Shown piece after piece: positions 4,179 through 63,547 of a DNA stretch of 64,000 nucleotides. The position numbers and the translations under genes were made by a program. Source of the stretch: Candidatus Thermodiscus eudorianus (lineage in GTDB: Archaea > Thermoproteota > Thermoprotei_A > Sulfolobales > Acidilobaceae); the NCBI GenBank assembly GCA_015521085.1, contig WAOW01000006.1, positions 124,001-188,000 on the forward strand, written 5' to 3'. The notes under the pieces were generated by a model that was not told the DNA's origin, did not search any database, and saw nothing but the letters and a program-made list of their open reading frames with translations. Each line of letters begins with the position of its first letter. Within the stretch, counting starts at the first letter, position 1.

Positions 4179-6053
4179 CTAGCCGGACACCACGCTACGC
4201 GCCAACCCCAGCAAGACCCCGGGCACTACGCCAGCCAAATCAAGGCGTACTAGAGTACTAGCCAGAGGGACCCCGTCCGGAGACCAGCCCCTGGCGGCAT
4301 AATACTCCCGCCTAAGCACCTCCATAACCCTCCTATCAACGGCCTCGCCGCTACTCGGCCCATCCGATATAGGCTCCCTATAATAACGGGGAGGCAGCTC
4401 GTCGTGGACCTCTGGCTCTAGCCCGAGCCAGAGGTTGACCAGCCTCTCCAACGTAACAGTCCTCTCGCCTGAGAGGAGCAAGTCGCCCGGAGTATAGGAG
4501 TACCCTGTTAGAGCCGAGATTAGACCAGCCGTGTTCTCGGGGTATATAGTCCCCCTGGAGAACTTACATATGCCCGTGTTATCGTAGAACGCCATCAAGT
4601 CTTCCCCGTCCTTGACAAGCTGCGCTTTACCCTCATAGACTAGCCTGTCAACGCTGGAGTACCTCCAGAGCCTCCCATACAGCTCGAAGGCATAGGCCCC
4701 GCTAGTCAAGTGGTCGGCGCCCCTGCTCGAAACCATGTATCCCAGGGCCATGCCCTTCAACCCCCTAGCATCATAGGCCGGGGGCTCAAGGCCCTTCACA
4801 TCGACTAGCAGGTCATGGCCCGCTCCAAGCCTGTCAGCGGCCCTACGGGACCCGTCGGCAAGCAGGGCTCCAAGCCTGCCCCTCCTATAAGCCATGTCCT
4901 CGACCAGCCTCGCCACCTCCTCCGCATCACCCCACGCCAGGGCCCCATCCAGGTACCCCTTCTCGCCGGCATGCATCGCCCAGGCGATAGTGGCGCCGAG
5001 GCTTATGGTGTCGAATCCGAGCTCGTCAGCTAAATGGTTGAGGTAGGCCACGTCCCTGATGTTGCAGATCCCTATATCGGAGCCCAGCGCGTAGACGGTC
5101 TCGTACTCGGGGCCGTCCACGCTGGGCGAATCCCCGACCCTTATCACCTGTGTACAGGGCCTTCCGCAGCCGATGCAGGGATTGCGGCCAACCCTGTATC
5201 TAGGGGCGAACCGTGATAGCTCCTCGTGAGCTCTCTCGGGGTCTGGGCACCAGGATAGCGTGCTCCTCTTCCAGTTGAGCGATGGCAGGACGCCGTAGGC
5301 CTTGTTTGTATAGTCTAGCATAAGCGGCGTGCCATACTCCACTAGCGCCTTGGAGGCTCTGGCTTCGTGGGTAGCCTTGTTGAGCCTCCCCGCCTCCTCC
5401 AACACCCTGGACCTGTCGGCCGCCTTTGGCGGGGTGTTGCCTTTCACTAGTATCGCCTTGAGCTTCTTAGAGCCCATGACTGCTCCGAGCCCCGTCCTGC
5501 CAGCCTGCCTGCCGCCAGCGTCTATCATGGAGATGGCCGATAGGTTCTCGCCGGCAGGGCCTATGATGGCGTCGGCGTAGCCAGGGTGTCTCTCCTTTAG
5601 AGCCCCCCTAGCCTCTCCTATCCTCTTACCCCATAGGCTCCCAGCCTCCTCTATCCTCACGCCATCATTATCAACGACTAGGATTCCGGGGTCGTCGAGG
5701 GCTCCCTTGACGACTATAAGGTCGTAGCCAGTCCTCCTGATCTCCCACCCTATCCTGCCCCCCGCCATAGATCTGCCGAGTAGGCCTGTTAGTGGGCTCC
5801 TCGCGACGAACGCTGTTTTACTGGCTGTCGAGAGCCCGCTCCCAACCAGGGCCCCGGGAGATATAACTAGCGGGTTGTCGGGGGATAGGGGCTCGGGAGG
5901 GGTCTTGCCTGCGTGGAGGCTCCAGACTAGCACTCCGAGGCCCCTTCCACCCAGCAGTAGCCTGTAGGCTTCCCAGGGTATCTCGAAACCGGTATACTCT
6001 GCGTTATCCCCCTTCAGCTCCACTAGGAGGCCCTTGCCCCAGAACCAGTGCAT
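4179..6053 (-). CDS. Tungsten-dependent aldehyde:ferredoxin oxidoreductase (AOR family)
   Basis: This 624-residue protein would oxidise aldehydes to carboxylates using a tungsten-bispyranopterin centre and a [4Fe-4S] cluster, passing electrons to ferredoxin. The cluster ligands are visible as CIGCGRPC (Cys293, Cys296, Cys300) plus Cys496 in DNTGICKF. The active-site region carries PEYE (Glu316/318) and RGADH (His448), at positions matching the catalytic Glu and His of Pyrococcus AOR. The N-terminal GGRGLG, ISPGALVGSG and GRSMAGGRIG blocks are family landmarks. Length is normal for AOR (about 600-625). The ATG start at 6053 is clear. It lies between the binding-protein gene and the ATPase gene of one ABC importer, which is unusual. 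Which AOR subfamily (AOR, FOR, GAPOR or other) cannot be settled here. Confidence 0.88.
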   Translation of the reverse strand: MHWFWGKGLLVELKGDNAEYTGFEIPWEAYRLLLGGRGLGVLVWSLHAGKTPPEPLSPDNPLVISPGALVGSGLSTASKTAFVARSPLTGLLGRSMAGGRIGWEIRRTGYDLIVVKGALDDPGILVVDNDGVRIEEAGSLWGKRIGEARGALKERHPGYADAIIGPAGENLSAISMIDAGGRQAGRTGLGAVMGSKKLKAILVKGNTPPKAADRSRVLEEAGRLNKATHEARASKALVEYGTPLMLDYTNKAYGVLPSLNWKRSTLSWCPDPERAHEELSRFAPRYRVGRNPCIGCGRPCTQVIRVGDSPSVDGPEYETVYALGSDIGICNIRDVAYLNHLADELGFDTISLGATIAWAMHAGEKGYLDGALAWGDAEEVARLVEDMAYRRGRLGALLADGSRRAADRLGAGHDLLVDVKGLEPPAYDARGLKGMALGYMVSSRGADHLTSGAYAFELYGRLWRYSSVDRLVYEGKAQLVKDGEDLMAFYDNTGICKFSRGTIYPENTAGLISALTGYSYTPGDLLLSGERTVTLERLVNLWLGLEPEVHDELPPRYYREPISDGPSSGEAVDRRVMEVLRREYYAARGWSPDGVPLASTLVRLDLAGVVPGVLLGLARSVVSG

Positions 6054-12457: not shown

Positions 12458-13939
12458 CTAGTAGGGGATTAGCAATAGTCCGAGGGCTATCACCGGGGCT
12501 ATCAATAGCATTAGTGTCAGCGTGTAGCCGAAGACGTCTCTAGCCCTAGTATTGGTTATGTGGAGCAGTGGGATGGCCCAGAAGGGCTGGAGCAGGTTGG
12601 TCCAGGCGTCTCCTACGGAGTAGGCTATTATTGTCTTCCCTATCGGTACTCCTAGGGCGTGGCCGGCTCTGATCAGTATCTCGCCTATCGCGGCCCACTC
12701 TCCTCCTCCGCTGGGGACGAATATGTTGACTAGACCGGCTATCAGCCAAGCTACTATCGGCCATGTCGTCGGGGTTGCTACGGAGGCTATCTTGTTGGCT
12801 ATGATCATCGCGGCGCTAACGCCGGTTGCTGGCAGCTTCGTGTTGAATAGCCCGAATATACCGGCGTAGAAGTGGAACTGGAGTATGACGCCCGCCGCCG
12901 AGCGTACGCTGTTGTAGAATACCCTGGCGTATCTTATCGGGTTGCCGTAGAGTAGGAGTCCGAATATCAGGAAGATGAAGTTCATCGTGTTGAGGTTTAG
13001 GGCCCTGCTTATTCCCTTCGTGCCTAGGTCGTAGCCTATGGCTATGAGGCCGAGTAGTACGGTTATGTAGGCTAGCGTCCTGGAGTTCTCTAGCTTGTCT
13101 GCTAGGGTCTTTGCCTCAACCTTCTCGAAGCGGGGTACTTCCTCCTCTCTCTCCACGGCTTTGGGGTCGTATTCCTCGATGCCCTTGACGTTCTCGTGGC
13201 TTGGGGAGATGAACCAGAAGATTATCATGGCGAATATGGTGACTAGTATGAAGTTTGCTATGGTGTAGGGGTGGAATATCGTCTCGCTCAACGGTATAGT
13301 CTCCCTGCCGTATAGCTCCTTGACCACCTTCCCCAGGAAGTAGCCTGGCGTGTTCATTAGCAGGGACGCGCTAGCCGTCAGACCCCAGTGCCATGTGAGG
13401 CCGAGGCCAGCGTATGCCGCTGCCACCACTGCGGGGTAGTGGATTTTGCGTTTCTTGAAGTAGGCTTGTCTCCCTATCTCCCTCGCCAGCACTGCACCGC
13501 CTATTAGGCTTAGGCCCCAGCTTATGTAGGAGAGCAGTATTGATACCAGTGCGGCGAGTACTGCTGCCTGTTTGGTGTTTTTGGGCCATCCGGCTAGCTT
13601 CGATAGCCCCCTGTAGATGTAGGGGTGGTATGCTATGACGTAGCCGGTTACGAGTATTAGTGTCATTTGCATGCTGAACTTTAGCAGCTTCCAGAAGCCT
13701 CCGTACCATGCGCTGTACACTAGGAATTTTACTGTTCCTCCCCATCCCAGGTGTTTTGGCGTGTCTAGTACCCATACTACTATTATCATTCCTATTATTG
13801 TTAGTATTATTGCGAATATGAATGGGTCGGGCATCCAGCTCCGGACCCAGGCTTCTGCCTTTTCTCCGAATACTTCCAGCCAAGGACGCTTTGAGGACTC
13901 CTTACCCTGGGGCAAGGAGTTCACCGGACTCCTAACCAT
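12458..13939 (-). CDS. Short-chain fatty acid / acetoacetate transporter (AtoE family)
   Basis: A 493-residue membrane protein with about 12 helices. It carries family landmarks AGLVNIFVPSGGGEWA (about 405-420), LTWHWGLTASASLL and VGDAWTNLLQPFWAIP. AtoE-family carriers move short-chain carboxylates such as acetoacetate and butyrate. A charged cytoplasmic loop near 255-290 is longer than usual. ATG start at 13939 with GGGATGG upstream. It lies downstream of the amidase and acyl-CoA synthetase genes on the same strand. Together they suggest uptake and activation of carboxylates released from amides. Confidence 0.85.
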   Translation of the reverse strand: MVRSPVNSLPQGKESSKRPWLEVFGEKAEAWVRSWMPDPFIFAIILTIIGMIIVVWVLDTPKHLGWGGTVKFLVYSAWYGGFWKLLKFSMQMTLILVTGYVIAYHPYIYRGLSKLAGWPKNTKQAAVLAALVSILLSYISWGLSLIGGAVLAREIGRQAYFKKRKIHYPAVVAAAYAGLGLTWHWGLTASASLLMNTPGYFLGKVVKELYGRETIPLSETIFHPYTIANFILVTIFAMIIFWFISPSHENVKGIEEYDPKAVEREEEVPRFEKVEAKTLADKLENSRTLAYITVLLGLIAIGYDLGTKGISRALNLNTMNFIFLIFGLLLYGNPIRYARVFYNSVRSAAGVILQFHFYAGIFGLFNTKLPATGVSAAMIIANKIASVATPTTWPIVAWLIAGLVNIFVPSGGGEWAAIGEILIRAGHALGVPIGKTIIAYSVGDAWTNLLQPFWAIPLLHITNTRARDVFGYTLTLMLLIAPVIALGLLLIPY

Positions 13940-14008: not shown

Positions 14009-15358
14009 TTATTTATTTAAGAATTTATAAAGTAATATCGAGTAGCCCACCAGGGCCCCCGTAGACGAGGCAGAAGCCAACTGCAAGGGGAAGGGGATAC
14101 CGCTCGGGAGCCTGACACTCCAGATAGGAACACTAGCCGCTGGCAAGTCTAGCACATTGAAGGGACCCGTAAGCCACGTAAACGTTGATGACGCCGAAAG
14201 CTCCGGGGTCACCTCGTCTAGCTTAGGCGCATCTCTTGGAACCGTTGGAAGCAACACCAGGTCATACTCACCCAGCAACAGCCTCGCCAAGCGTCTAACC
14301 CTCCCAAGCATACCCCGGGCCTCCATGTAGAGCGCGTGGTCAATGCGAGAACCCAGATCAAGTATCAGCCTAATATCATCTCCCATAACATCGCTGAAGA
14401 CCCTGTACTCGCGGTATAGGCTCAAATACGCTTCTCTAAGGGCTATTATCGCTCTAAGCCTCTCCGCAGCCATAAACCAGGCTAGCCTACCCTCCGGTAT
14501 AACACGATACGTGAGCCCGGCCTCGTCTAGGAGCGCCAGGACCCGATGGTAGGCCTCAGAGACCTCCTCGGAGATCCTCCGGGTGAACTTGAATACTCCA
14601 ATCGTGGCCTTCCTAGTGGCGAGTTTCTTGTAGGCTTGGAGGACCTCCTCTAATTCGATCAGTCCAGCCAGGTATAGTGGAGGTACCACGTGTAGGGGCG
14701 TCTTTGCCAGGAAACCAGCGGTTTCAAGGCTAGGCATGACTGTGTAGAAGTCGGCATCACTGGTCTCGTCCATAACGGGTTTAACGCCATAGACTCCCGT
14801 GAATGCCGCTGGCACGCGTATGCTCCCAGCGGCATCGGTTCCCACGCCAAGGTATACCTCTCCCGTGGCTACGGCTGCCGCCGGGCCGCCGCTACTGCCC
14901 CCAGTTATCCTACCCGGCGCCACAGGGTTTACCGGCGTTCCCGTGTGCGGGTTGACGTTGGTGGTGCCTAGGCCTAGCTCGTGCATGTTGCCTCTCCCAA
15001 GGAGCTTGAACCCTGCGCTGGCGAGTTTCTCAAGGAGCCATGAGGTTGTCTGGGGGTGTAGGGTGAGGTAGCCTGTGCCTAGGCTTGCAGGTTCCCCGGA
15101 TCTCATGAAGTTGTCCTTGTAGACTATCAATGGACCGCATGTCTCGCCGCTCACCGGGGGGTGTACTAGTATTCTCTGCTCTAGTAGCCTACGGACTAAG
15201 CCTTCGTGGCATTTTCCTACCTCGCTCGATATTATATCGCTGACATCTTCCACCACGCCCTTGAAGTCTCCTAGCCCACTCCATATCGAGTCTACCAGCA
15301 TCTTCTCCAGTTCAAGCCCCTTGGCTAGTTTACCAGCTATGCCGCCTGACAACGTCAT
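14009..15358 (-). CDS. Amidase-signature hydrolase
   Basis: A 449-residue amidase. The Ser-cisSer-Lys triad is visible: Lys in IVYKDNF (about 81), cis-Ser in GGSSGGPAAAVA (about 155-156) and the nucleophile Ser in GTDAAGSIRVPAAF (about 179). It would hydrolyse an amide to a carboxylate and ammonia. The presence of AtoE and an acyl-CoA synthetase beside it suggests a catabolic amidase rather than GatA, and no GatB/GatC genes are nearby. I chose ATG 15358 because the TATA element at 15391-15400 (minus strand TTTAATATAT) predicts transcription from about 15370. A TTG at 15373 would be at the very 5' end. The substrate is unknown. Confidence 0.8.
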   Translation of the reverse strand: MTLSGGIAGKLAKGLELEKMLVDSIWSGLGDFKGVVEDVSDIISSEVGKCHEGLVRRLLEQRILVHPPVSGETCGPLIVYKDNFMRSGEPASLGTGYLTLHPQTTSWLLEKLASAGFKLLGRGNMHELGLGTTNVNPHTGTPVNPVAPGRITGGSSGGPAAAVATGEVYLGVGTDAAGSIRVPAAFTGVYGVKPVMDETSDADFYTVMPSLETAGFLAKTPLHVVPPLYLAGLIELEEVLQAYKKLATRKATIGVFKFTRRISEEVSEAYHRVLALLDEAGLTYRVIPEGRLAWFMAAERLRAIIALREAYLSLYREYRVFSDVMGDDIRLILDLGSRIDHALYMEARGMLGRVRRLARLLLGEYDLVLLPTVPRDAPKLDEVTPELSASSTFTWLTGPFNVLDLPAASVPIWSVRLPSGIPFPLQLASASSTGALVGYSILLYKFLNK

Positions 15359-15415
15359 AACACCTCTATGCAACCAAATAATATTAATTTATATATTAAA
15401 AAAGGCTGTATAGCT

Positions 15416-17383
15416 TTATCCGCTCTTCATAAGCTCTTTGAAGACCCTCCTCACATACTCCAGGCTCTCGGGGTTCTCCATCACGGGGCTCGCTTGAACC
15501 TCCATTCCACGGGCTATGGCCCGTATGATCCTCCTCATTATCTTCCCGCTCCTCGTCCTAGGCAGGTCGTCGACGGGGAATATCCTGCTGGGAGTGAAGG
15601 GCTTGCCCAGCTCCCGGGCCACGAGCCCCTTTATCTCGGCCTCGTCACTGCTCGTGATCTCCTCGCCGGGCTTCGGCGTTACGAGGCAGACTATCGCCTC
15701 GCCCTTAACGGGGTCTGGTACTCCAACGCAGGCGGTCTCCTTGACCTTGGGGTACCTGTTTATTATAGCCTCTATCTCGGCAGGCCCTATCCTCTTACCA
15801 GCGACCTTTATCACGTCATCAGCCCTACCCAGTATGAACCAGTAGCCGTCCTCGTCGATCAGGGCTAGGTCGCCATGGTACCACATGCCGGGGAACCTGG
15901 ACCAATACGTCTCGATATACCTCTGGGGGTCCCTCCAGAGACCCCTGGTCATGCTCGGGGCAGGCTTCTTAGCCACTAGATACCCGGGCGTGCCCCTGAC
16001 CGGCTTGCCCTCGTCGTTGACGACATCGACGTCCATACCGAGACCTGGGCCCCACAGGGTCGACGGCTTAAGCGGTACCACGGGGCTTGGTAGGACGAAG
16101 CAGCCGAATATCTCCGTCCCGCCCGACAGGTTTATCATGGGGCGCTTCTCCTGGCCCACGTCCCTCACTATCCAGAGCCACGTCTGCGGATCTATGGGCT
16201 CGCCCGTGTTCCCGAAGGCCCTCAGGCTCGATACATCGTGTTTCTCGACTTCCTCTGTACCATAGCTCCTGAGCATCCTGGCCACGGTTGCGGCGAAGCC
16301 GAAGTGGGTGACCTTGTACTTCTCGATCAGCATCCAGACCCTGTCCCTGCTAGGGTAGTCGATCCCGCCCTCGACTATTAGGTGGCTCACCCCGTGGAAC
16401 TGCGCCCCGAAGACTTGCCAGGGACCCATCATCCAGCCTAGATCGGTTATCCACCACAACCTATCGCTACTGCCAGGCTTCATGTCGAGGTTGAAGTAGT
16501 GCTCCTTCGAGGGCTGGAGCAGGGTCCCTGCATGGCTTATCACTGCCCCCTTAGGCTTCCCCGTGGTTCCACTGGTGTAGAGTAGGAGCGCCGGGTCCTC
16601 GGCTTCCATCTCCTCGGGCTCCGCTACAGGCCTCTTCCCAGATAATGCATCATCCCACCACTCGTCTACGTCGTCGTCCCAGGGTATGTCCACGCCGAGC
16701 CTCTTGATCACGACGACCTTTGAGGGGTAGCCTGCAAGCTTCCTGGCCTCGTCGGCGTTGTGTTTTAAGACTATCTTGCGGCCCTTCCTATAGTAGCCGT
16801 CGACTGTGACCATAACCTTGGCCTCCGAGTCGGCTAGCCTCTGCGCCACGGCTGAGGGAGCGAAGCCCGAGAAGATCGGGCTGGCTATCGCCCCGATCTC
16901 TAGAGCCGCCAGCATAGCCGTTATCGACTCTGGGATCATTGGGGCGTATATGGCTACGACGTCGCCCTTCCCCACCCCGATCTCCTTGAGGTACGCCGCG
17001 AACCTCCATACAGTGTCGCGTAGCTCGCCGTAGGTTACACGTTTCTCGGCGCCGTCTTCGCCCACCCAGGTGAACGCCTCCTTGCTGGCTCCGTAGCGTT
17101 TAACGGGGAGGTCTACCGTGTTGTAGGCGGCGTTCAGCTTGCCTCCGATGTACCACTTCGCCCATTCCGGCCCCTTCGAGAGGTCCACGACCTCCTGCGG
17201 CTCCTTGAACCATTCAACGCCTATCCACTCGGGTAGATTGCCCCAGAACCATTTGATGTCTCGTGTAGACGCCTCCACTAGCTCCTTGTAGCTCTTGAAG
17301 CCGTGCTTCTCCATGAAGCTAGTAACGTTCGCGTTGGATACAACCTCCCTTGGGGGGCGCCATATGTATCCCACTATTTGCAC
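15416..17383 (-). CDS. AMP-forming acyl-CoA synthetase (Acs superfamily)
   Basis: 655 residues, the usual length of acetyl-CoA-synthetase-type enzymes. It has the P-loop YTSGTTGKPKG (269-279), the adenylate-binding NLSGGTEI block, the hinge GRADDVIKVAGKRIGP and the C-terminal catalytic Lys motif RTRSGKIMRR. Acetate-specific enzymes carry Trp in the TWWQTETG block; the equivalent position here is Gly421 in NLSGGTE. That opens the acyl pocket and points to propionyl, branched or medium-chain acids (inference from known Acs mutants). GTG start at 17383; GTG 17374 is possible. It is divergent from the thiolase-like cluster, with a TATA-rich zone at 17410-17421 between them. Likely feeds acyl-CoA to that cluster. 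Confidence 0.87.
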   Translation of the reverse strand: MQIVGYIWRPPREVVSNANVTSFMEKHGFKSYKELVEASTRDIKWFWGNLPEWIGVEWFKEPQEVVDLSKGPEWAKWYIGGKLNAAYNTVDLPVKRYGASKEAFTWVGEDGAEKRVTYGELRDTVWRFAAYLKEIGVGKGDVVAIYAPMIPESITAMLAALEIGAIASPIFSGFAPSAVAQRLADSEAKVMVTVDGYYRKGRKIVLKHNADEARKLAGYPSKVVVIKRLGVDIPWDDDVDEWWDDALSGKRPVAEPEEMEAEDPALLLYTSGTTGKPKGAVISHAGTLLQPSKEHYFNLDMKPGSSDRLWWITDLGWMMGPWQVFGAQFHGVSHLIVEGGIDYPSRDRVWMLIEKYKVTHFGFAATVARMLRSYGTEEVEKHDVSSLRAFGNTGEPIDPQTWLWIVRDVGQEKRPMINLSGGTEIFGCFVLPSPVVPLKPSTLWGPGLGMDVDVVNDEGKPVRGTPGYLVAKKPAPSMTRGLWRDPQRYIETYWSRFPGMWYHGDLALIDEDGYWFILGRADDVIKVAGKRIGPAEIEAIINRYPKVKETACVGVPDPVKGEAIVCLVTPKPGEEITSSDEAEIKGLVARELGKPFTPSRIFPVDDLPRTRSGKIMRRIIRAIARGMEVQASPVMENPESLEYVRRVFKELMKSG

Positions 17384-17457: not shown

Positions 17458-18627
17458 ATGGAGCGTGCCGCAATCATAGGGGTTGGTTGGTACGGGTTCA
17501 AGCCAACAACCCCCGAGGTCTCGTTCCGGGAAATGATGTTTGAGGCGGCGACGAGAGCCTATCAGGACGCAGGCATAGACCCCAGAAGGGACGTAGACGC
17601 GTTCCTAAGCGCGCAGGAAGACTTCTGGGAGGGAATAGCGATAGCAGACGAGTTCGCCCCCGAGCCGATAGGCGGGGTCCTGAGGCCCACAGTGACCGTA
17701 GCGGGAGACGGAATGCAAGCTCTAGCCAACGCCGTGATGCTAGTACAGACCGGGTACTTCGACATCGTAGCCGTTGAGGCCCATGGGAAGCCGAGCGACA
17801 TAGCGTCTCTAGGGGAGATCTATGATCTAGCCCTCGACCCCATACACCACAGACCGGTCAAGCCAGCCCACCCATTCTTCATGATGGCGTTCGACGCGCA
17901 AGCCTACATGATGAGGGCCGGGGCAGAGCCAGCCCACCTGGCACTGGTCGCGGCTAGCAACCGTAACGCTGGCCTAAGGAATCCCAGGGCCAGCTACGCG
18001 GCGAGAATCGGGGTCGACGAGGTGCTCGACGCGGAGCCCGTTATAGACCCCCTGACCAGGTACGACATAGCTGGCTTCTCGGACGCGGCGATAGTGATGG
18101 TAGTGGCCAGGGAGAGCGTCGCGAAGACCCTGACCGACAAGCCCGTCTACATAGACGGTATTGGATATGCGACCGAGACCGGGACTGGTACCCTGGAGTG
18201 GCACTCCTGGGGTAGGATGCCTAGCATGAGGATAGCGGCGATGATAGCCTACAGGCAGGCCGGGATAAGTGACCCCTCGACGGCAACGGACTTCGCCGAG
18301 GTGGAGGATAGAGCCAGCCACTACCAGTTAATCGCCTTGGAAGAGCTTGGGCTGGCCCCGGAGGACCAGGCCCATAAACTCTTCGAGAAAGGCGAGTACA
18401 GCCCGGACAGCAGCTACCCCGTCAACCCGAGCGGAGGGACCCTCTCCTTGGGTGTATCGCTTGAAGCCACGGGACTGGCCAGGGTCTTGGAGGCCGTGCT
18501 ACAGCTTAGGGGGGAGGCTGGAAGCCACCAGCTGAGCGGTGTAGAGAGGGCTATCGTCGCCTCCTGGCGTGGACCGCCCACCACTACGTCCATGGTGGCT
18601 GTTTTGAGCGGCCCAGAGTTCGGTTAG
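17458..18627 (+). CDS. Cys-free thiolase-superfamily protein (SCPx/Ltp-like), first of a pair
   Basis: A 389-residue thiolase-fold protein of the sterol-carrier-protein-x / lipid-transfer class. The N-terminal AAIIGVGWYGF and the C-terminal VNPSGGTLSLGVSLEATG blocks define the fold. The nucleophile block, normally ACASGLQAL, reads VAGDGMQAL with Ala82 at the Cys position, and the whole protein contains no cysteine. The His of the GHPxGA block is Ser. It therefore cannot use classical thiolase chemistry. Family members lacking Cys act as aldolases with DUF35 partners in steroid side-chain breakdown (Ltp2 with ChsH2). ATG start with GAGGAG upstream. First gene of a four-gene plus-strand operon. 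Confidence 0.75.
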   Translation: MERAAIIGVGWYGFKPTTPEVSFREMMFEAATRAYQDAGIDPRRDVDAFLSAQEDFWEGIAIADEFAPEPIGGVLRPTVTVAGDGMQALANAVMLVQTGYFDIVAVEAHGKPSDIASLGEIYDLALDPIHHRPVKPAHPFFMMAFDAQAYMMRAGAEPAHLALVAASNRNAGLRNPRASYAARIGVDEVLDAEPVIDPLTRYDIAGFSDAAIVMVVARESVAKTLTDKPVYIDGIGYATETGTGTLEWHSWGRMPSMRIAAMIAYRQAGISDPSTATDFAEVEDRASHYQLIALEELGLAPEDQAHKLFEKGEYSPDSSYPVNPSGGTLSLGVSLEATGLARVLEAVLQLRGEAGSHQLSGVERAIVASWRGPPTTTSMVAVLSGPEFG

Positions 18628-18643
18628 ATGGAGGTGTGTTGGT

Positions 18644-19822
18644 GTGAGGGCTAACTTGCATGTGAAGGATCGCGTGGCTATTGTAGGGGCTGGGATGACC
18701 CTCTTCAGGAGGAGATTCCTTGAGACTCCAAGGGAGCTGGCTTGGGATGCCGTGAAGCAGGCCCTCGACAACGCAGGGCTAACATTGAATGACATAGACT
18801 GTGTGGTGATCGGTACCGCCCCGGACGCCTTCGATGGAGTACACTTCAACGGGGAGTATCTAGCCGATGGAGCTGGAGGCTTCGGGAAGCCGGTTGACAG
18901 GATATACATCGGCGGCGGGACCGGCGTCATGGTGCCAATCTCCGCCTGGTGGCACGCCGCTAGCGGGCACTGCAACACGGTGCTGGCCGTTGCGGAGGAG
19001 AAGATGAGCCCTGCCATGCCACACCCACAGTATGTGTTCGCGTACATCTGGGACCCTATACTTGAGAGGCCGCTTGGGCCAAACCTGATATGGATATTCG
19101 CCATGGAGATGAGGAGGTACATGCACAAGTGCGGGGCGAAGAAGGAGGACATAGCCCTCGTGAGCGTTAAGAACAAGAGGAACGCCCTAGACCATCCAGC
19201 CGCCCAGGCCGCGGCTAAGATCACGGTCGAGGACGTGCTCAACAGCGAGCTACTAGTGTGGCCCGTTAACAGGCTAGATATAAGCCCGGTCAGCGACGGG
19301 GCCGTGGCGCTGGTCATAGCCAGGGAGAAGGAGGCTCGCAGGATCACGGACTCCCCCGTATGGATAGAGGGGGTTGGGTGGACGCTTGACAACACCCACT
19401 GGTACAACAGGGAGCTGGCATACCCCAGGTACGTGGAGTACGCCGCCAGGATGGCCTATAGGATGGCTGGGATAGAGAGGCCGTGGAAGGAGATAGACGT
19501 TGCAGAGCCCTACGACCCCTTCGACTACAAGGAGCTACACCACATAGAAGGGCTACAGCTGGCCAGGAGATGCGAGGCCTGGAAGCTTGTCAAGGAGGGA
19601 TACTTCGACAGGGACGGAGAGCTGCCTACGAGTCCAAGCGGGGGCCTGCTAGGAGTAGGCAACCCGATAGCCGCTGCCGGCTTGATGAAGGTCGCAGAGC
19701 TATTCTGGCAGCTGCGCTATGAGGCCGGGAAGAGGCAGGTAAAGAAGCCGGTGCACAAGGGCGTCGCCCAGGCCTGGGGCGATCTAATGCAGGCTGGCAC
19801 CGTGATTGTTTTAGGGAATTAG
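18644..19822 (+). CDS. Thiolase-superfamily protein lacking the catalytic Cys and His, second of the pair
   Basis: 392 residues with thiolase fold (VAIVGAGMTLFRRRF at the start, TSPSGGLLGVGNPIAAAG near the end). The nucleophile position is Gly91 in YIGGGTGVMVP, and the GHPxGA His is Asn. Four cysteines are present, none at the active-site position. The usual HDxF motif near 290 is altered to EPYDPFDYKE. GTG start is set by GGAGGTG seven bases upstream. It begins 16 bases after the first thiolase-like gene and 19 bases before the first DUF35 gene. It probably forms a heteromeric thiolase-fold complex with its neighbour. Trp/Tyr-rich insertions (YVFAYIWDPI, THWYNRELAYPRY) are unusual. Confidence 0.74.
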   Translation: MRANLHVKDRVAIVGAGMTLFRRRFLETPRELAWDAVKQALDNAGLTLNDIDCVVIGTAPDAFDGVHFNGEYLADGAGGFGKPVDRIYIGGGTGVMVPISAWWHAASGHCNTVLAVAEEKMSPAMPHPQYVFAYIWDPILERPLGPNLIWIFAMEMRRYMHKCGAKKEDIALVSVKNKRNALDHPAAQAAAKITVEDVLNSELLVWPVNRLDISPVSDGAVALVIAREKEARRITDSPVWIEGVGWTLDNTHWYNRELAYPRYVEYAARMAYRMAGIERPWKEIDVAEPYDPFDYKELHHIEGLQLARRCEAWKLVKEGYFDRDGELPTSPSGGLLGVGNPIAAAGLMKVAELFWQLRYEAGKRQVKKPVHKGVAQAWGDLMQAGTVIVLGN

Positions 19823-19841
19823 AGGATGGAGGTGGTGTGTG

Positions 19842-20402
19842 ATGAGTGAAGGCGGGAAGAGTGGAATGCCCAGGGAACCCCTACCGGGTGTCTACCTGAA
19901 GAGGAAGGATCTGGAGGAGCTACCGGGCCTTATACGATACAAGCCTGTGGCCAAGTACATGTTCTCGGCGGGACAGGCCCAGTCCAGGTTCCTCAAGGGA
20001 TTGAAGGCTGGCAAGATACTAGGGGTCAAGTGCCCGGTCTGCGGTAGAGTCTACGTGCCTCCAAGGGCGTACTGCGAGTACTGCCATGCGCCCACCTCAG
20101 AGTGGGTGGAGCTGCCTGGCACTGGCGAGATACATACCGCCGTGGTGAGTTATATAGCGACTGATAGGAGCCGGCTTGAAGAGCCCGAGATCGTGGGCGT
20201 AATAAAACTAGACGCGCCCGGCTACAGAGACGGCCAATACGAGTTCGCGGGAATGTTCCACAGGATATGCGGTGTCACGCCGGAGCAGGTGATGGATGGA
20301 TCAGCGATAGGATTGAGGGTGAAGCCTAGGTGGAAGCCCCCGGAGGAGAGGACTGGCTCGGTTAACGACATCGAGTGCTTCGAGCCCGTGGAGGAGGGGT
20401 GA
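19842..20402 (+). CDS. DUF35 acyl-CoA-binding protein with intact zinc ribbon (first)
   Basis: About 186 residues. A helical N-terminal part (1-60) leads into a rubredoxin-like zinc ribbon, CPVCGRVYVPPRAYCEYC, then an OB-fold (about 85-165). DUF35 proteins bind CoA thioesters and bridge partner enzymes, as in the archaeal thiolase/HMG-CoA synthase complex and ChsH2. Start at ATG 19842 with GGAGGTGG upstream. Located directly after the two thiolase-like genes, so it most likely belongs to their complex. It is longer than the DUF35 at 63561 because of the N-terminal extension. Confidence 0.83.
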   Translation: MSEGGKSGMPREPLPGVYLKRKDLEELPGLIRYKPVAKYMFSAGQAQSRFLKGLKAGKILGVKCPVCGRVYVPPRAYCEYCHAPTSEWVELPGTGEIHTAVVSYIATDRSRLEEPEIVGVIKLDAPGYRDGQYEFAGMFHRICGVTPEQVMDGSAIGLRVKPRWKPPEERTGSVNDIECFEPVEEG

Positions 20403-20408
20403 TGGGCT

Positions 20409-20876
20409 GTGAGCTGGGATAAGAGGGCTCTGCCGGGAGACGTTATACACTATCCCGGCAAGCAGGAGACCGAGTACTACCTCTACACGCCCGGCATACA
20501 CGGGAGGGAGATGGCCGAGTTCCTGAAGCGGGGCAAGGTGCCAGGCATGCTGTGCGGCGATCAACTCCTCCTACCGCCTAAGACCTTCTGCCCCGACGCG
20601 GAGCTGAGCAAGGGCGATGTAATAGAGGTTACCGGTCCCTTCACTGTAGCCCTGGTAACGGTGGTCTACGAGGACTTCTACGGGAACAAGCTTGAAGAGC
20701 CACAGGTGCTGGGCTTGATAACGGTTCCAGGCGCGGTCGGAGGCTATCTTGGCGTGATCAACGCTGACCCCGACAGCGTGTACCCTGGCATGAAGGTCAG
20801 GCCGGTCTTCAAGAAAGAAGAGGAGAGGACCGGGGCCATCACAGACATCATGTACTGGGAGCCAGTTGAAGACTAG
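20409..20876 (+). CDS. DUF35 protein with degenerate zinc ribbon (second)
   Basis: 155 residues, homologous in layout to the preceding gene: helical lead, ribbon position, OB-fold, and shared EERTGAITDI near the C-terminus (EERTGSVNDI in its neighbour). The ribbon region keeps only two cysteines (GMLCGDQLLLPPKTFCPDA), so it probably does not bind zinc. GTG start six bases after the previous stop. The two DUF35 genes appear to be a duplicated pair matching the two thiolase-like genes, suggesting a 2+2 complex. Its TAG stop shares CTAG with the convergent SDR gene. Confidence 0.78.
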   Translation: MSWDKRALPGDVIHYPGKQETEYYLYTPGIHGREMAEFLKRGKVPGMLCGDQLLLPPKTFCPDAELSKGDVIEVTGPFTVALVTVVYEDFYGNKLEEPQVLGLITVPGAVGGYLGVINADPDSVYPGMKVRPVFKKEEERTGAITDIMYWEPVED

Positions 20877-27893: not shown

Positions 27894-29054
27894 CTAGTAG
27901 AGCGACTCCAGTAGCTCCCTGAGCTCCTCGGGCGCCGGTATTAGTCTTGCGTACGCGATAGATGGATCGTGATAGGCTTCCTCCACGACCAGGTCTATCA
28001 CCTCCTCGAACCTGGACCTTTCCACGCCATAGTCTCTTATCCTGTGCTTGAACCCGACCTCCTTGTAGAACGCTAGTATGTGATCATATAGTGTATCTCG
28101 CGGCTCTAGGCCGTAGACGGATTCCAGGATTGTCTTAACCATTTCATACTTCCTCTTCGAATATTCATCTTTATAGTTGTACTTGACTACCGCAGGGATC
28201 ACTATACCAACCATAGTCCCGTGGTGTATCCTTAGCTTAGCGCCCAAGGGATGCGCTATGGCGTGGATCAAGCCTAGACCCCCATTCGTAAATGCCATCC
28301 CAGCCATTGTAGCCGCCATGTGTATCTCAGCCATGCGGTCTATCTCGCCCTCCAGCGCCTCCTTTAGTCCAGTCATTATAACCGGGACCACTTTCTCAGC
28401 CAACGCGTCTGTGAAGGGATTAGCCTGGTTAGCCACTAGGGCTTCCAGCGCGTGTCCCAGCGCGTCGAGCGCCGCCCCTACTATAATGCTCCTCGGCGCT
28501 GATTGAGGCAGTCTTGGGTCTAGGATAGTGGCGTAGGGTATTATATCGTAGCTGGCTACATCTATCTTCTCTCTACCCCGTTCCCCCACCTTAGTCAACA
28601 CTATGCCGAAACTCGCATCGCTCCCCGTGCCAGCGGTCGTAGGCATCGCGACAAGTATGGGCTTCTCAAACTCTATCCGGAGCGGGTTAAAGGGAGCGAT
28701 ATCCTCTATACTGGTATCGGGCCGGAGAAACCTTATCTTCCCGGCCTTCGCCGCGTCTATGACGCTCCCGCCCCCAACGGCTAATAGGAGGTCTGGATCA
28801 ACCCTTCGGATAGCATTAGCCACCTCGTCTGCCACATCCAGACTGGGCTCTGGATCGACCTCGACGTAGACCTCGACCTCTAAGCCGTTTGAAGCCAGTG
28901 TGTTCATCATCGCGTCGAACCAGTCTAGACTCCTTATGACCTTGTCGGTAACCACTAGTATCTTGGAGGCGTCCAGGTCGCTTGCGAGGGCTACTAGGGC
29001 CTCGGCCGAGCCCTCGTTCCAGATTATCCTCCTCGGGAGTACTATCACTGCCAT
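27894..29054 (-). CDS. Iron-containing alcohol dehydrogenase (group III)
   Basis: 386 residues. The N-terminal Rossmann part has VGGGSVIDAAKAGK, then AMPTTAGTGSDAS (nucleotide contact). The metal-binding helical part has DALGHALEA (Asp and His ligands) and GLIHAIAHPLGAKLRIHHG with two further His ligands. It would interconvert alcohols and aldehydes with NAD(P)H. In this genome an AOR could take up the aldehyde product. ATG start at 29054. It lies 32 bases after the acyl-CoA dehydrogenase gene on the same strand, so the two may form one unit. Confidence 0.88.
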   Translation of the reverse strand: MAVIVLPRRIIWNEGSAEALVALASDLDASKILVVTDKVIRSLDWFDAMMNTLASNGLEVEVYVEVDPEPSLDVADEVANAIRRVDPDLLLAVGGGSVIDAAKAGKIRFLRPDTSIEDIAPFNPLRIEFEKPILVAMPTTAGTGSDASFGIVLTKVGERGREKIDVASYDIIPYATILDPRLPQSAPRSIIVGAALDALGHALEALVANQANPFTDALAEKVVPVIMTGLKEALEGEIDRMAEIHMAATMAGMAFTNGGLGLIHAIAHPLGAKLRIHHGTMVGIVIPAVVKYNYKDEYSKRKYEMVKTILESVYGLEPRDTLYDHILAFYKEVGFKHRIRDYGVERSRFEEVIDLVVEEAYHDPSIAYARLIPAPEELRELLESLY

Positions 29055-29086: not shown

Positions 29087-30247
29087 CTATGCTTTGGGTG
29101 CACGGACCTTTCCAAGCAACGCCTTTACGATGACCATTCTCTGGACTTCATTGGTGCCGTCGCCTATCTCGATCATCTTTATATCCCTGTAGTGTCTCTC
29201 GATCGTGCTCTCCTTGCTGTAGCCTATACCCCCCATGACCTGCATGGCCATCCGGACCAGGTCTACGCCCCATTTCGCCGCTGCTAGCTTGGCCATGCTA
29301 CTCCACATGGGATAGTCCGGCTCGTTTCGATCGACTTTAACCGCTGCCGTGTATATGAGCTGGCGAGAAGCCTCTAGTAGTACCTTCATCTCCGCTATCA
29401 TGTGCTGGACCATCTGGTGCTCTATCAATGCCTTCCCCATGGATGTCCTCTGCTTGCTGTACTCCAGTGCCTCCTCGAAGGCTGCTTGCATTATGCCTAG
29501 CCCTGTTGAGGCCGTGATTATCCTGCCCTCGTTGAGCCCGTCCATGATTATCTTAAAGCCCTTGTTAACCTCTCCGACCATGTTCTCCTTCGGGACGCGG
29601 CAATCCTCGAAGACCACCTCGCTAGTCCCGCTCCCCCTGTAACCCATCATCTCAAGCTTCGAGACCTCGATACAGTCGCTCTTGTCAACAACAAACACAG
29701 ACACGCCCCTGTGCCTGTCCTCGGGCTTCCCAGTACGGGCGGCCACCAGGAAGAATGTCGCATATGGAGCATTCGTGATGAAGACCTTCCTGCCGTTTAT
29801 AACCCATTCATCCCCGTCCAGGACGGCCCTCGTCGTTATCGAGGCTGCATCGGTGCCGCAGCACGGCTCTGTCAGCGCGAAGGCACCTAGCTCCCCATTC
29901 GCCAGGCGGGTTAGGTATCTTTCCTTTATCTCGTCGCTTGCATAGTGAACTAGCGGATACGCCACCATCGTGCCGGAGACTGTAGCCATTATAGCTACGG
30001 CGCTAGAGTATCTTGCCAGCTCCTCTACGACCACAGCGCTCTCCAGCGTAGAGAGGCCAGGCCCCCCATACTCCTCCGGCACACGTAGCGCGAAGTAGCC
30101 CATCTCGGCGACAGCCTTAATAATATCGTCGGGGACCACGTTGGACTCGTCAATCTTCTTAGCGATTCCCGCCAGGTACTTCTCCCCGAACTCCCTCACA
30201 CTACTGCGTAGAAGCCTGATCTCCTCCGAGTCAAATAGACTTGTCAA
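29087..30247 (-). CDS. Acyl-CoA dehydrogenase
   Basis: 386 residues with all three ACAD regions: an N-terminal helical domain, the beta domain with AFALTEPCCGTDAASI (FAD/substrate contact) and INGRKVFITNAPYA, and the C-terminal helical domain with RTSMGKALIEHQMVQHMIAEM and MQVMGGIGYSKE. The usual catalytic-base block YEGT reads GDGTNEVQR, so Asp replaces Glu if the base is at the short/medium-chain position. The base may instead lie elsewhere, as in isovaleryl-CoA dehydrogenase. FAD-dependent alpha,beta-desaturation of acyl-CoAs is expected. No ETF genes are in the window. Confidence 0.88.
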   Translation of the reverse strand: MTSLFDSEEIRLLRSSVREFGEKYLAGIAKKIDESNVVPDDIIKAVAEMGYFALRVPEEYGGPGLSTLESAVVVEELARYSSAVAIMATVSGTMVAYPLVHYASDEIKERYLTRLANGELGAFALTEPCCGTDAASITTRAVLDGDEWVINGRKVFITNAPYATFFLVAARTGKPEDRHRGVSVFVVDKSDCIEVSKLEMMGYRGSGTSEVVFEDCRVPKENMVGEVNKGFKIIMDGLNEGRIITASTGLGIMQAAFEEALEYSKQRTSMGKALIEHQMVQHMIAEMKVLLEASRQLIYTAAVKVDRNEPDYPMWSSMAKLAAAKWGVDLVRMAMQVMGGIGYSKESTIERHYRDIKMIEIGDGTNEVQRMVIVKALLGKVRAPKA

Positions 30248-61328: not shown

Positions 61329-62411
61329 ATGAACTTCGACATTCAAAGAGAATATCATGGAGGAGCCGGGATACATGGCTGGGGAGGCTACATCCCAAGA
61401 TACAGACTCCCGGTAGATAAGATAGCCGAGACCTGGGGTTGGCCTCCTCAACAGTACAAGGGCTTGAACGTGAGCCACAAGTCAGTCGACGGCCCAGACG
61501 AGGACTCTACGACCATGGGCTTCGAAGCGGCATACAACGCATTACTGAGGGCCCGGATAGATCCCTCGCTCATCGGAGCAGTATTCTTCGGCAGCGAGTC
61601 GAAGGTTTATGCCGTAAAACCCTCTGCAACCCTGATAGCAGAGATGATCGGGGCCACGCCAGCTACAATGGCCAGCGACCTGGAATTCGCCTGCAGAGCT
61701 GGTAGCGAGGGCCTTAAAGCCTCGCTGGGACTAGTCTCCTCCGGCATAGTGAAATACGCCCTAGCCGTGGGCAGCGATACCGCCCAGGCGGAGCCTGGGG
61801 ATGTACTCGAATTCACAGCCTCAAGCGGGGCAGCCGCCTTCATCGTCGGCCCGAGCGAGGGGTCAGCGGCAGTCGTCGAGGCGACCTATACCTATGTAAC
61901 CGACACCCCGGACTTCTGGAGGAGAGCCGAGAAACCCTATCCGAGGCATGGAGAGGGCTTCACAGGTGAGCCAGCCTACTTCCACCATATAATAAACGCC
62001 GTCAAGGGCCTCTTCGAGAAGACAGGGCTTAAGCCAGAGGACTTCGACTACGCGATATTCCACCAGCCTAATGGAAAGTTCCCCCTTAGGGTGGGAAAGC
62101 GCCTCGGGTTCACAGATAAACAACTGGAGAGGGGGCTTGTGACTCCCTTCATCGGGAATACCTATAACGCGAGTGCGTTGCTAGGCCTCGCCAGGGTCCT
62201 GGATGTGGCCAAGCCTGGCCAGAGGATCCTGGTGGCGCCCTTCGGCAGTGGGGCTGGTAGCGATGCCTACAGCATCCTTGTAACCGACGAGATAAGTGAG
62301 AGGCAGGGGCTAGCGCCTGGGATCGATGACTACCTCAAGAGGAGTAAGGAGGTCGACTACGCAACCTACACCAGGTATAGGAGGATACTTGTGATGTTGT
62401 CCAGGGGGTGA
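61329..62411 (+). CDS. Hydroxymethylglutaryl-CoA synthase (archaeal type)
   Basis: 360 residues from ATG 61329; GTG 61308 would add seven. Condenses acetyl-CoA with acetoacetyl-CoA in the mevalonate route to isoprenoid lipids. The N-terminal GIHGWGGYIPRYRL is family-typical. The nucleophile Cys122 is in DLEFACRAGSEG; FHQPNGKFP gives the His and Asn, and GNTYNASALLGLARVL the C-terminal block. So this thiolase-fold enzyme keeps its active site, unlike the other three thiolase-like proteins of the window. Overlaps the next gene region and is followed by a DUF35 gene, the known archaeal complex order. Confidence 0.92.
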   Translation: MNFDIQREYHGGAGIHGWGGYIPRYRLPVDKIAETWGWPPQQYKGLNVSHKSVDGPDEDSTTMGFEAAYNALLRARIDPSLIGAVFFGSESKVYAVKPSATLIAEMIGATPATMASDLEFACRAGSEGLKASLGLVSSGIVKYALAVGSDTAQAEPGDVLEFTASSGAAAFIVGPSEGSAAVVEATYTYVTDTPDFWRRAEKPYPRHGEGFTGEPAYFHHIINAVKGLFEKTGLKPEDFDYAIFHQPNGKFPLRVGKRLGFTDKQLERGLVTPFIGNTYNASALLGLARVLDVAKPGQRILVAPFGSGAGSDAYSILVTDEISERQGLAPGIDDYLKRSKEVDYATYTRYRRILVMLSRG

Positions 62412-62416
62412 TCGTT

Positions 62417-63547
62417 ATGGTTTACGTTACTAGCGTCGGGATGACTAGGATTGACAGGCACTTCGAAAAGGGGGTTAGGGATCTGGCCTTCGAGGCCGCT
62501 AGGAAGGCTTTGGAGGACGTCGACATAGACTCGATCGACTACCTGATTGTAGCCTCAAGCCTATCATACCAGCAAGCGCCGCAACTGGATCTGGCAGCCT
62601 ATATCGCGGGCGAGCTTGGGGTTGCAGTGAAGTCAGCGCTCGCAGTAGAGGCTGGGGAGAATAGTGGATTGGCCGCCGTCGAGGTGGCCTACAATCTCCT
62701 CCAGGCTCACGCCGCCGAGAGGGTTCTCGTGGTTGGAGTTGATAAGCTAACCGAGTATCCAAGTGGGCCAACGTATAGGATGCTTGAGGCGCTCTACGAT
62801 ACAGAGACTGACGCGGTATACAATATTGGCCATGCAACGCCGCTCGCCCTATTAATGAGAATCTACATGGAGAGGTATGGCGTGCCTAGGGAGACGCTGG
62901 CCTACTGGCCCGCCATGATGCACTTGCACGGCAAGGAGAACCCCTATGCCATGCTTAGGTTTGCCATAAAGCCTGAGAAGGTCCCTAGCTCGATGCCCAT
63001 TGCAGAGCCGATAACACTGCTCGACGCGTATCCATTGGGCGACGGTGCCGCTGCTGTGCTGTTGTCGTGCGAGGACCAGCAAGGAGACCATTTGGCTAGG
63101 CTAGCCAACATAGTCTCCGGGGTCGGCGCTCAATCAATAGCGTTGAGGGAAGACCCGCTGAGGATTGAGGCCGTCGAGAAGCTCGTACACGAACTAGATC
63201 TAAAGCCGGAAGACTTCGACGTAGTAGAGGTTCACGACAACTTCACCATAATGGGTATACTTCTACTGGAGGCTCTAGGCCTAGCACCTAGGGGGAAGGC
63301 GGCTGAACTAGTAAAGCAAGGATACTTCAGCATCAACGGAGAGGGACCCCTGGTCAACCCGAGCGGAGGGCTTAAGTCCCGGGGCAACCCTATCGGCGCC
63401 ACCGGAGTATACATGATCGCTGAGACAGCGCTCCAACTAGCCGGAGAGTTCCCTGGAGTCACTAGAAGCGGGGCCGAGAAGGGCCTAGTGGTTGGAGTCA
63501 ACGGCCATGGCTCTTCCGCCCGGATAGGCGTATTGGAGAGAGTCTAG
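62417..63547 (+). CDS. Thiolase-superfamily protein without catalytic Cys (partner of HMG-CoA synthase)
   Basis: 376 residues. In other archaea the gene here encodes acetoacetyl-CoA thiolase, which hands its product to HMG-CoA synthase through DUF35. The nucleophile block, expected as VEAACASG, reads VEAGENSG with Glu81 in place of Cys. The GHPIGATG block is GNPIGATG (His to Asn). The late Cys block reads VGVNGHGS. The whole protein contains one cysteine, in LLSCEDQ, away from the active site. Residues that bind CoA (NPSGGLKSRGNP) are kept. Start at ATG 62417, eight bases after GGGGGTG. Confidence 0.82.
   Translation: MVYVTSVGMTRIDRHFEKGVRDLAFEAARKALEDVDIDSIDYLIVASSLSYQQAPQLDLAAYIAGELGVAVKSALAVEAGENSGLAAVEVAYNLLQAHAAERVLVVGVDKLTEYPSGPTYRMLEALYDTETDAVYNIGHATPLALLMRIYMERYGVPRETLAYWPAMMHLHGKENPYAMLRFAIKPEKVPSSMPIAEPITLLDAYPLGDGAAAVLLSCEDQQGDHLARLANIVSGVGAQSIALREDPLRIEAVEKLVHELDLKPEDFDVVEVHDNFTIMGILLLEALGLAPRGKAAELVKQGYFSINGEGPLVNPSGGLKSRGNPIGATGVYMIAETALQLAGEFPGVTRSGAEKGLVVGVNGHGSSARIGVLERV

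What the first reader, a model, noticed from the sequence alone, without database searches (positions are those of the whole stretch)
17458..20876. Two Cys-less thiolase-fold proteins with two DUF35 proteins: a candidate aldolase-type acyl-CoA complex
Seen: two adjacent thiolase-superfamily genes whose nucleophile positions are Ala82 (first) and Gly91 (second); the first has no cysteine at all and the GHPxGA His is Ser or Asn. They are followed by two DUF35 genes, one with an intact zinc ribbon and one with two of its cysteines missing. Known: Ltp2 with the DUF35 protein ChsH2 in actinobacterial steroid breakdown is a retro-aldolase, not a thiolase. Inference: this is a hyperthermophilic 2+2 complex that cleaves or forms a carbon-carbon bond in a hydroxyacyl-CoA made by the neighbouring acyl-CoA synthetase and SDR. 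I know of no described archaeal counterpart.
Basis: partly seen in the sequence, partly recalled or inferred. Interest (0 to 1): 0.78.

Follow-up and report, generated by a model that had tools for sequence, protein, structure and literature searches.

The report
Archaeal Cys-less thiolase pair, likely aldol-lyase
A four-gene unit kept almost unchanged across many heat-loving archaea encodes two thiolase-shaped proteins that have lost the thiolase catalytic cysteine plus two helper proteins, and it most likely cuts or joins a carbon-carbon bond in short acyl-CoAs by aldol chemistry, like a paired bacterial sterol aldolase (Ltp3-Ltp4), though nobody has assayed it.

Summary
Two thiolase-fold proteins (ThiA 17458-18627, ThiB 18644-19822) lack the catalytic Cys (Ala82, Gly91), and two DUF35 proteins follow, one of them with a half zinc ribbon. 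One detail is wrong: the GHP His is Val333 in ThiA, not Ser; it is Asn340 in ThiB. This is no sequencing error or local decay. The unit thiA-thiB-duf35-duf35 recurs in nearly all of 101 loci from Thermoproteota, Bathyarchaeia, Geothermarchaeota and Baldrarchaeota. ThiB is 66-96% identical throughout, with a near-invariant YDPFDYKELHH and an invariant GNPI. Tyr290 sits at the catalytic-base position of the steroid aldolases Ltp2 and Sal. Trees place both proteins outside Cys-thiolases (p=0.008) and ThiB outside Sal-like proteins (p=0.02). Their nearest grouping is the actinobacterial pair PRK07937+PRK08313, seen here in a steroid cluster with a tandem DUF35 protein (one zinc, one zincless). That matches the Ltp4/Ltp3 'heteromeric aldol-lyase'. 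Recurrent neighbours are acyl-CoA dehydrogenase (39/101), acyl-CoA synthetase (29/101), a short-chain fatty-acid transporter and, in places, branched-chain oxoacid dehydrogenase or methylmalonyl-CoA mutase. Best reading: a ThiA-ThiB-DUF35-DUF35 aldol-lyase on short, perhaps branched, 3-hydroxyacyl-CoAs. Activity and substrate are inferred, not shown.

The parts
17458..18627 (+). ThiA: Cys-less thiolase-fold subunit (PRK06066); Ala82 at nucleophile, E283-D284-R285 at HDC, V333 at GHP His
   Evidence: (554 bits, cut-off 516)
18644..19822 (+). ThiB: Cys-less thiolase-fold subunit, probable catalytic aldolase (PRK06065); Gly91 at nucleophile, Tyr290-Asp-Pro-Phe, Asn340
   Evidence: (776 bits, cut-off 455)
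19839..20402 (+). DufA: DUF35 protein with intact CxxC/CxxC zinc ribbon and OB fold
20409..20876 (+). DufB: DUF35 protein, OB fold, zinc ribbon reduced to two Cys; like SSO2064 (3irb)
15416..17383 (-). Acetyl-CoA-synthetase-like acyl-CoA synthetase, divergent from thiA; homologue near 29/101 loci
14009..15373 (-). Amidase, same strand as the synthetase; adjacency not seen in relatives
12458..13939 (-). Short-chain fatty acid transporter (PF02667, 481 bits); homologue beside thiA also in L050 and L074
29087..30247 (-). Acyl-CoA dehydrogenase; 68-73% identical homologues lie directly beside thiA in L065-L067 and L078
20873..21673 (-). SDR, convergent; adjacent only in the two nearest relatives (L060, L061), so probably not a core part

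Best explanation
ThiA, ThiB, DufA and DufB form a heteromeric thiolase-fold acyl-CoA aldol-lyase: a ThiA-ThiB heterodimer flanked by the two DUF35 proteins, the archaeal counterpart of the actinobacterial Ltp4-Ltp3-tandem-DUF35 system. ThiB is the catalytic chain: without a Cys it cannot form an acyl-enzyme; instead Tyr290 takes the proton from (or gives it to) the beta-hydroxyl of a 3-hydroxyacyl-CoA, the C2-C3 bond breaks (or forms), and an enolate of acetyl- or propionyl-CoA plus an aldehyde or ketone results. The enolate-protonating residue is unknown; Asn340 and Asp380 are the best-placed invariant or near-invariant candidates. ThiA keeps a different conserved polar set (D84, E281, D/E283, D284, R285, E336, R371) and is probably a partner that shapes or holds the site. 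In the cell the unit follows uptake, CoA-activation, dehydrogenation and hydration of short, probably branched, acyl chains. Shown: the genes, residues, conservation, gene order, predicted fold and tree. Inferred: complex, aldol chemistry, direction, substrate.
For: Residues: all thiolase catalytic residues are replaced in ThiB (Cys to Gly, HDCF to YDPF, GHP to GNP); Y290 in 78/80, N340 80/80, D380 79/80. Tyr is the base of Ltp2 (Y294DHF) and Sal (Y302DCY; Y302F abolishes activity) (PMC12329534); the spacing to the second site is 50 in all three (294/344, 302/352, 290/340). Tree: ThiA, ThiB and bacterial Cys-less pairs are separated 100/99 from Cys-thiolases and Sal-like proteins; grouping ThiA+ThiB with Cys-thiolases is rejected, p 0.008. 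Bacterial pair PRK07937+PRK08313 (YxPF, N at 340, no Cys) with a tandem DUF35 protein, in Tsukamurella inside a steroid cluster; Ltp3-Ltp4 is called a heteromeric aldol-lyase (PMC6678751). Fold: AF2 pLDDT 85 and 90; Ltp2 6ok1 and Sal 9myr among Foldseek matches. Context: acyl-CoA dehydrogenase 39/101, synthetase 29/101, SCFA transporter, oxoacid dehydrogenase and methylmalonyl-CoA mutase in some loci.
Against: ThiB has Pro292 where Ltp2 has His and Sal an essential Cys304, and Asn340 where Ltp2 has Tyr344, so no known acid is in place. Two orthologues have His at 290 (L090, L092). ThiB does not group with Sal-like proteins (p 0.023). Direct orthology ThiB-PRK08313 or ThiA-PRK07937 is unresolved (p 0.10, 0.20). 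No hydratase gene is in the unit and the genome has no MaoC hit (four crotonases). The nearest solved folds are ordinary thiolases. No complex model, ligand or activity data. Ltp3-Ltp4 itself rests on knock-outs as cited in reviews.
Confidence: 0.55

Rival explanations
1. The complex is a non-catalytic acyl-CoA binding scaffold or regulator that passes intermediates among the synthetase, dehydrogenase and other beta-oxidation enzymes, analogous to the scaffolding role of DUF35.
For: All known thiolase catalytic residues are gone in both chains; DUF35 proteins scaffold complexes (PMC6996347); ThiA is more variable, 37-61% identity across the sample.
Against: ThiB is 66-96% identical across phyla with the four active-site loops near-invariant, which is not how a mere scaffold usually evolves; the conserved Tyr is at the proven aldolase position.
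Confidence: 0.15
2. It is a Claisen-type or hydrolytic 3-oxoacyl-CoA cleaving enzyme that uses a non-Cys mechanism, i.e. it fills the thiolase step of short-chain fatty acid oxidation.
For: It sits where a thiolase is expected, beside synthetase, dehydrogenase and a short-chain fatty acid transporter; an SDR that could make the 3-oxo substrate is next door in the window.
Against: The genome also encodes a thiolase with all canonical residues (L001: CATGS, HDCF, GHPL), Bathyarchaeia carry one beside the unit, and no non-Cys thiolase mechanism in this fold is known to me.
Confidence: 0.15
3. It works in the synthetic direction: an aldol addition of an acyl-CoA enolate to an aldehyde or ketone to build a branched 3-hydroxyacyl-CoA.
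For: Aldol reactions are reversible; dehydrogenases and synthetases beside it can serve either direction.
Against: SCFA transporter, acyl-CoA synthetase and methylmalonyl-CoA mutase neighbours and lower expression of Saci_2230-2235 on xylose (PMC8578740) fit breakdown better.
Confidence: 0.1
4. Degenerate or mis-sequenced ordinary thiolases.
For: Similarity to Cys-thiolases at 30-35% identity.
Against: The same residues recur in about 100 loci; coding signal is normal; the tree rejects grouping with Cys-thiolases.
Confidence: 0.01

Closest known systems
Actinobacterial Ltp3-Ltp4 heteromeric aldol-lyase with a tandem DUF35 protein (PRK08313 + PRK07937)
   Same: Two adjacent Cys-less thiolase-fold genes; a zinc and a zincless DUF35 module; Tyr in YxPF and Asn at the GHP position in PRK08313; synthetase and hydratase nearby; one clade with ThiA/ThiB in the tree.
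   Different: About 36% identity at best; below PRK08313/PRK07937 cut-offs; DUF35 modules are two genes in archaea; no steroid genes; ThiA is not clearly the Ltp4 orthologue; identification of PRK08313/PRK07937 as Ltp3/Ltp4 rests on gene context and memory.
Ltp2-ChsH2(DUF35) and Sal-Shy(DUF35) steroid aldolases (PDB 6ok1, 9myr)
   Same: Thiolase fold, no nucleophilic Cys, catalytic Tyr in YDxF, DUF35 partner.
   Different: Homodimeric aldolase core; His or Cys two residues after the Tyr is Pro here; Tyr344/Gln352 is Asn340; separate clade from Sal-like proteins.
Archaeal acetoacetyl-CoA thiolase with DUF35 and HMG-CoA synthase (PDB 6esq, 6et9)
   Same: Fold and DUF35 partnership; nearest structural match of ThiB.
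   Different: Has Cys, HDCF and GHA; homodimeric thiolase; no ThiA-like partner.
SSO2064 (PDB 3irb), DUF35 protein of Sulfolobus solfataricus
   Same: Match to DufB over residues 1-115 (1.5e-11); thiolase neighbourhood reported for the family (PMC2954200).
   Different: Keeps all four zinc Cys; function only suggested (acyl-CoA binding).

Membership tests
NCBIfam PRK06066 / PRK06065 (uncharacterised thiolase-domain equivalogs) | Score over curated cut-off | tested here: met
   P0001 554.4 > 516; P0002 775.9 > 455
Canonical acetyl-CoA C-acetyltransferase (thiolase) | Nucleophilic Cys, catalytic HDCF and GHP His | tested here: not met
   Gly91/Tyr290/Pro292/Asn340 in ThiB; Ala82/Glu283/Arg285/Val333 in ThiA
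Ltp2/Sal steroid aldolases | Base Tyr in YDxF motif | tested here: met
   YDPF; Tyr in 78/80 ThiB, His in two
Ltp2/Sal steroid aldolases | Second catalytic residue (Tyr344, or Cys two after the Tyr) | tested here: not met
   Asn340 and Pro292
Ltp2/Sal steroid aldolases | Membership of the same clade | tested here: not met
   ThiB + Sal-like held together rejected, p-AU 0.023; true Ltp2 not in the set
Ltp3-Ltp4 heteromeric aldol-lyase | Two adjacent Cys-less thiolase-fold subunits with zinc and zincless DUF35 modules | tested here: met
Ltp3-Ltp4 heteromeric aldol-lyase | Score over PRK08313 / PRK07937 cut-offs | tested here: not met
   P0002 265.9 vs 514; P0001 95.1 vs 419
Ltp3-Ltp4 heteromeric aldol-lyase | Orthology subunit by subunit | tested here: inconclusive
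   ThiA+PRK07937 p 0.20, ThiB+PRK08313 p 0.10; ThiA and ThiB are sisters at 88/78
Ltp3-Ltp4 heteromeric aldol-lyase | Aldol cleavage of a 3-hydroxyacyl-CoA | not testable with these tools
   needs biochemistry
DUF35 (PF01796 / PF12172) | OB-fold domain over cut-off (both proteins) and zinc-ribbon domain over cut-off (DufA only) | tested here: met
   P0003 both; P0004 OB fold only, 28.3 vs 27.1

The most novel reading that the evidence does not exclude
A widespread archaeal aldol-lyase that opens a route for branched short-chain acids and branched-chain amino acids without biotin carboxylase or HMG-CoA lyase, for example 3-hydroxyisovaleryl-CoA to acetone plus acetyl-CoA or 2-methyl-3-hydroxybutyryl-CoA to acetaldehyde plus propionyl-CoA, using a Tyr-only ThiB site completed by the ThiA subunit.
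Probability: 0.15. Interest if true: 0.8.

Novelty: new variant of a known kind. Interest (0 to 1): 0.58.

Why it matters
Archaeal genomes are full of 'acetyl-CoA acetyltransferase' genes that are taken as evidence for fatty acid oxidation or synthesis. This pair cannot be a normal thiolase, yet ThiB is very strongly conserved across phyla. If it is an aldol-lyase, it changes how short and branched acyl-CoA metabolism is read in Sulfolobus, Aeropyrum, Pyrobaculum and Bathyarchaeia, gives the bacterial Ltp3-Ltp4 reaction an ancient non-steroid relative, and offers a heat-stable C-C bond-forming catalyst. It is directly testable: S. acidocaldarius is genetically tractable and its Saci_2230-2235 genes match this unit in order and content.

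Tried and rejected
Sequencing error or decay: rejected by recurrence and tree. Ltp2 as the direct counterpart: the Tyr agrees, the second residue does not, and the related Sal clade is rejected. SDR as a core partner: adjacent in 2 of 101 loci only. Branched-chain oxoacid dehydrogenase as an obligate partner: six loci of similar gene order, and the window's own genome has only a weak E1 hit. Methylmalonyl-CoA mutase co-occurrence: 70 of 73 ThiB genomes have it, but so do 39 of 124 without ThiB, so it is confounded by lineage. HMG-CoA lyase: no match over cut-off in 21 relatives, which leaves room for another lyase but proves nothing. The S. solfataricus operon was searched by locus names; little found. 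No papers on a branched-acid pathway with this gene set. Foldseek was run for both models; no coordinates are given, so active-site geometry could not be inspected.
Full report
What is there. The window holds four tightly packed plus-strand genes: ThiA (17458-18627, 389 aa), ThiB (18644-19822, 392 aa), DufA (19839-20402, 187 aa) and DufB (20409-20876, 155 aa), with gaps of 16, 16 and 6 bases. Pfam finds Thiolase_C_1 in both thiolase-like proteins, OB_ChsH2_C plus a zinc ribbon in DufA, and the OB domain alone in DufB. NCBIfam files ThiA under PRK06066 and ThiB under PRK06065, both equivalogs without a function. The genome is a 1.52 Mb archaeal draft; the nearest named loci are Acidilobaceae and other Thermoproteota MAGs.

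Active sites. Aligned with the M. thermolithotrophicus thiolase (6esq), BbsB and SCP2-thiolase, ThiB has Gly91 for the nucleophilic Cys, Tyr290-Asp-Pro-Phe for HDCF and Asn340 for the GHP His. ThiA has Ala82, Glu283-Asp284-Arg285 and Val333. Cys52, which most ThiA orthologues keep (58 of 75), is Ala here, which is why the window's ThiA has no Cys at all.

Conservation. A search of 84,980 species gave 516 relatives of ThiB, 80 kept. In 80 aligned ThiB sequences (window included) Y290 occurs in 78 (His in L090 and L092), and P292, F293, Y295, H299, N340, W378 in all, with D380 in 79. In ThiA the nucleophile position varies (A, S, T, G, P) but D84, E281, D/E283, D284, R285, E336, W370 and R371 are strongly kept. 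ThiA is therefore not simply decaying, but nothing in it matches a known catalytic set.

Gene order. thiA-thiB followed by DUF35 genes is seen in all of 20 Thermoprotei loci (one locus shows a single DUF35 gene) and in nearly all longer loci of the named set. Over 101 loci: thiA 97, acyl-CoA dehydrogenase 39, acyl-CoA synthetase 29, SCFA transporter 2 besides the window, SDR 2. Some of the 101 come from the same genomes by two routes, so these are counts of loci, not of independent events. In the window the divergent minus-strand genes are the acyl-CoA synthetase, an amidase and a short-chain fatty acid transporter (PF02667, 481 bits); a homologous transporter sits beside thiA in an Aeropyrum MAG (L074) and in L050. 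The window's acyl-CoA dehydrogenase at 29087-30247 has 68-73% identical homologues directly beside thiA in four other genomes. Six related loci add the branched-chain-type 2-oxoacid dehydrogenase genes and, in Bathyarchaeia, L121 adds methylmalonyl-CoA mutase genes (genes of the same lengths follow in L125 and L133); these Bathyarchaeia also carry a divergent ordinary thiolase with CASSG and GHPVGATG.

Sulfolobus. Genome G026 (2,225,959 bases, which I recall as the size of S. acidocaldarius DSM 639) has the order dufB-dufA-thiB-thiA-acyl-CoA dehydrogenase-acyl-CoA synthetase. This matches Saci_2230 to Saci_2235 as described in papers: acetyltransferases 2232 and 2233, dehydrogenase 2234, synthetase 2235 (PMC11486757), operon 2230-2233 (PMC6746942). 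These genes are lower on xylose (PMC8578740); PMC11486757 says relative to xylose with NZ-amines and that the cluster rises under nutrient excess. The tag assignment is by order, content and genome size, not by sequence record.

Known relatives. In Ltp2 the base is Tyr294 of YDHF and the acid Tyr344; in Sal they are Tyr302 and Cys304 of YDCY, with Gln352 at the Tyr344 place (PMC12329534). The distance is 50 residues in both and also from Tyr290 to Asn340 in ThiB. So ThiB shares the base position but neither known acid. On plasmids, S. clavuligerus and Tsukamurella carry a tandem DUF35 protein, then a 354-359 aa and a 388-390 aa thiolase-like protein; in S. clavuligerus the two are PRK07937 and PRK08313. 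Its DUF35 protein has two OB domains and one zinc ribbon, and in both species the first module has no zinc Cys. PRK08313 has no Cys at the site, YxPF and Asn at the 340 position. The Tsukamurella genes lie with a crotonase, an acyl-CoA ligase, a P450 and a steroid 3-ketoacyl-CoA thiolase, as ltp3 and ltp4 do with echA19 and fadD19 in Mycobacterium (PMC6593523). A review calls Ltp3-Ltp4 a heteromeric aldol-lyase that releases acetyl- or propionyl-CoA (PMC6678751). That these families are Ltp4 and Ltp3 is my inference from context and memory.

Tree. With 53 proteins, all Cys-less pairs form one side of a 100/99 branch against Cys-thiolases and Sal-like YDCY proteins. Holding ThiA+ThiB with Cys-thiolases is rejected (p 0.008) and ThiB with Sal-like proteins too (p 0.023). 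ThiA with PRK07937 and ThiB with PRK08313 are neither supported nor rejected (p 0.20, 0.10); in the best tree ThiA and ThiB are sisters with weak support. The root is not inferred, and TcLtp2 itself is not in the set. The groups were named after a first tree had been seen, so the p values are indicative.

Fold. AlphaFold2 gives pLDDT 85 (ThiB, pTM 0.89) and 90 (ThiA, pTM 0.92), with a weak loop at 333-339 in ThiB and 56-68 in ThiA. Foldseek returns thiolases first, then Ltp2 (TM 0.81-0.85) and Sal.

Mechanism and limits. I commit to an aldol or retro-aldol reaction on a 3-hydroxyacyl-CoA with ThiB Tyr290 as base, in breakdown of short, perhaps branched, acyl-CoAs. Upstream steps are available: six acyl-CoA dehydrogenases and four crotonases in the genome, no MaoC; a methylmalonyl-CoA mutase is present for propionyl-CoA; no HMG-CoA lyase over cut-off in 21 relatives. 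The substrate is a guess. No complex, no activity and no geometry were tested.

Noticed in passing
62408-63547: The thiolase between HMG-CoA synthase and a DUF35 gene has Glu at the nucleophilic Cys position (EAGENSG), HDNF and GNP. The Glu is present in all seven sampled genomes of the window's own family (L144-L150) and in L167/L169, while most other families keep Cys. The mevalonate-linked thiolase may be non-thiolytic here.
   Followed up: partly
L142 4712-10902: A second cluster in genome G055: two further thiolase-like proteins without the Cys (LYDAFS, Asn at the GHP place in one), one DUF35, acyl-CoA dehydrogenase and acyl-CoA synthetase: a paralogous system.
   Followed up: partly
L121 4124-5695, L123, L125, L133: Bathyarchaeia carry a canonical thiolase plus DUF35 divergent from the thiAB unit; methylmalonyl-CoA mutase genes follow the unit in L121.
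   Followed up: partly
L090, L092: The only two sampled ThiB proteins with His for Tyr290 (HDPF); both loci carry branched-chain-type oxoacid dehydrogenase genes.
   Followed up: no
L174 688-10345: Rhodococcus qingshengii plasmid cluster: two acyl-CoA dehydrogenases, two MaoC genes, a 304-aa very degenerate thiolase-like protein, a ThiB-like protein (VYAPF, NPIGATG), DUF35, CaiB transferase, SDR, ligase. Function unknown.
   Followed up: no
L187: Rhodococcus opacus plasmid thiolase-like protein with GGTSGG, FNPL and TNAG at the active-site loops: another Cys-less type.
   Followed up: no
4179-6053, 27894-29054: Aldehyde ferredoxin oxidoreductase and iron-containing alcohol dehydrogenase lie in the same window and could handle an aldehyde product; not linked to the unit elsewhere.
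   Followed up: no
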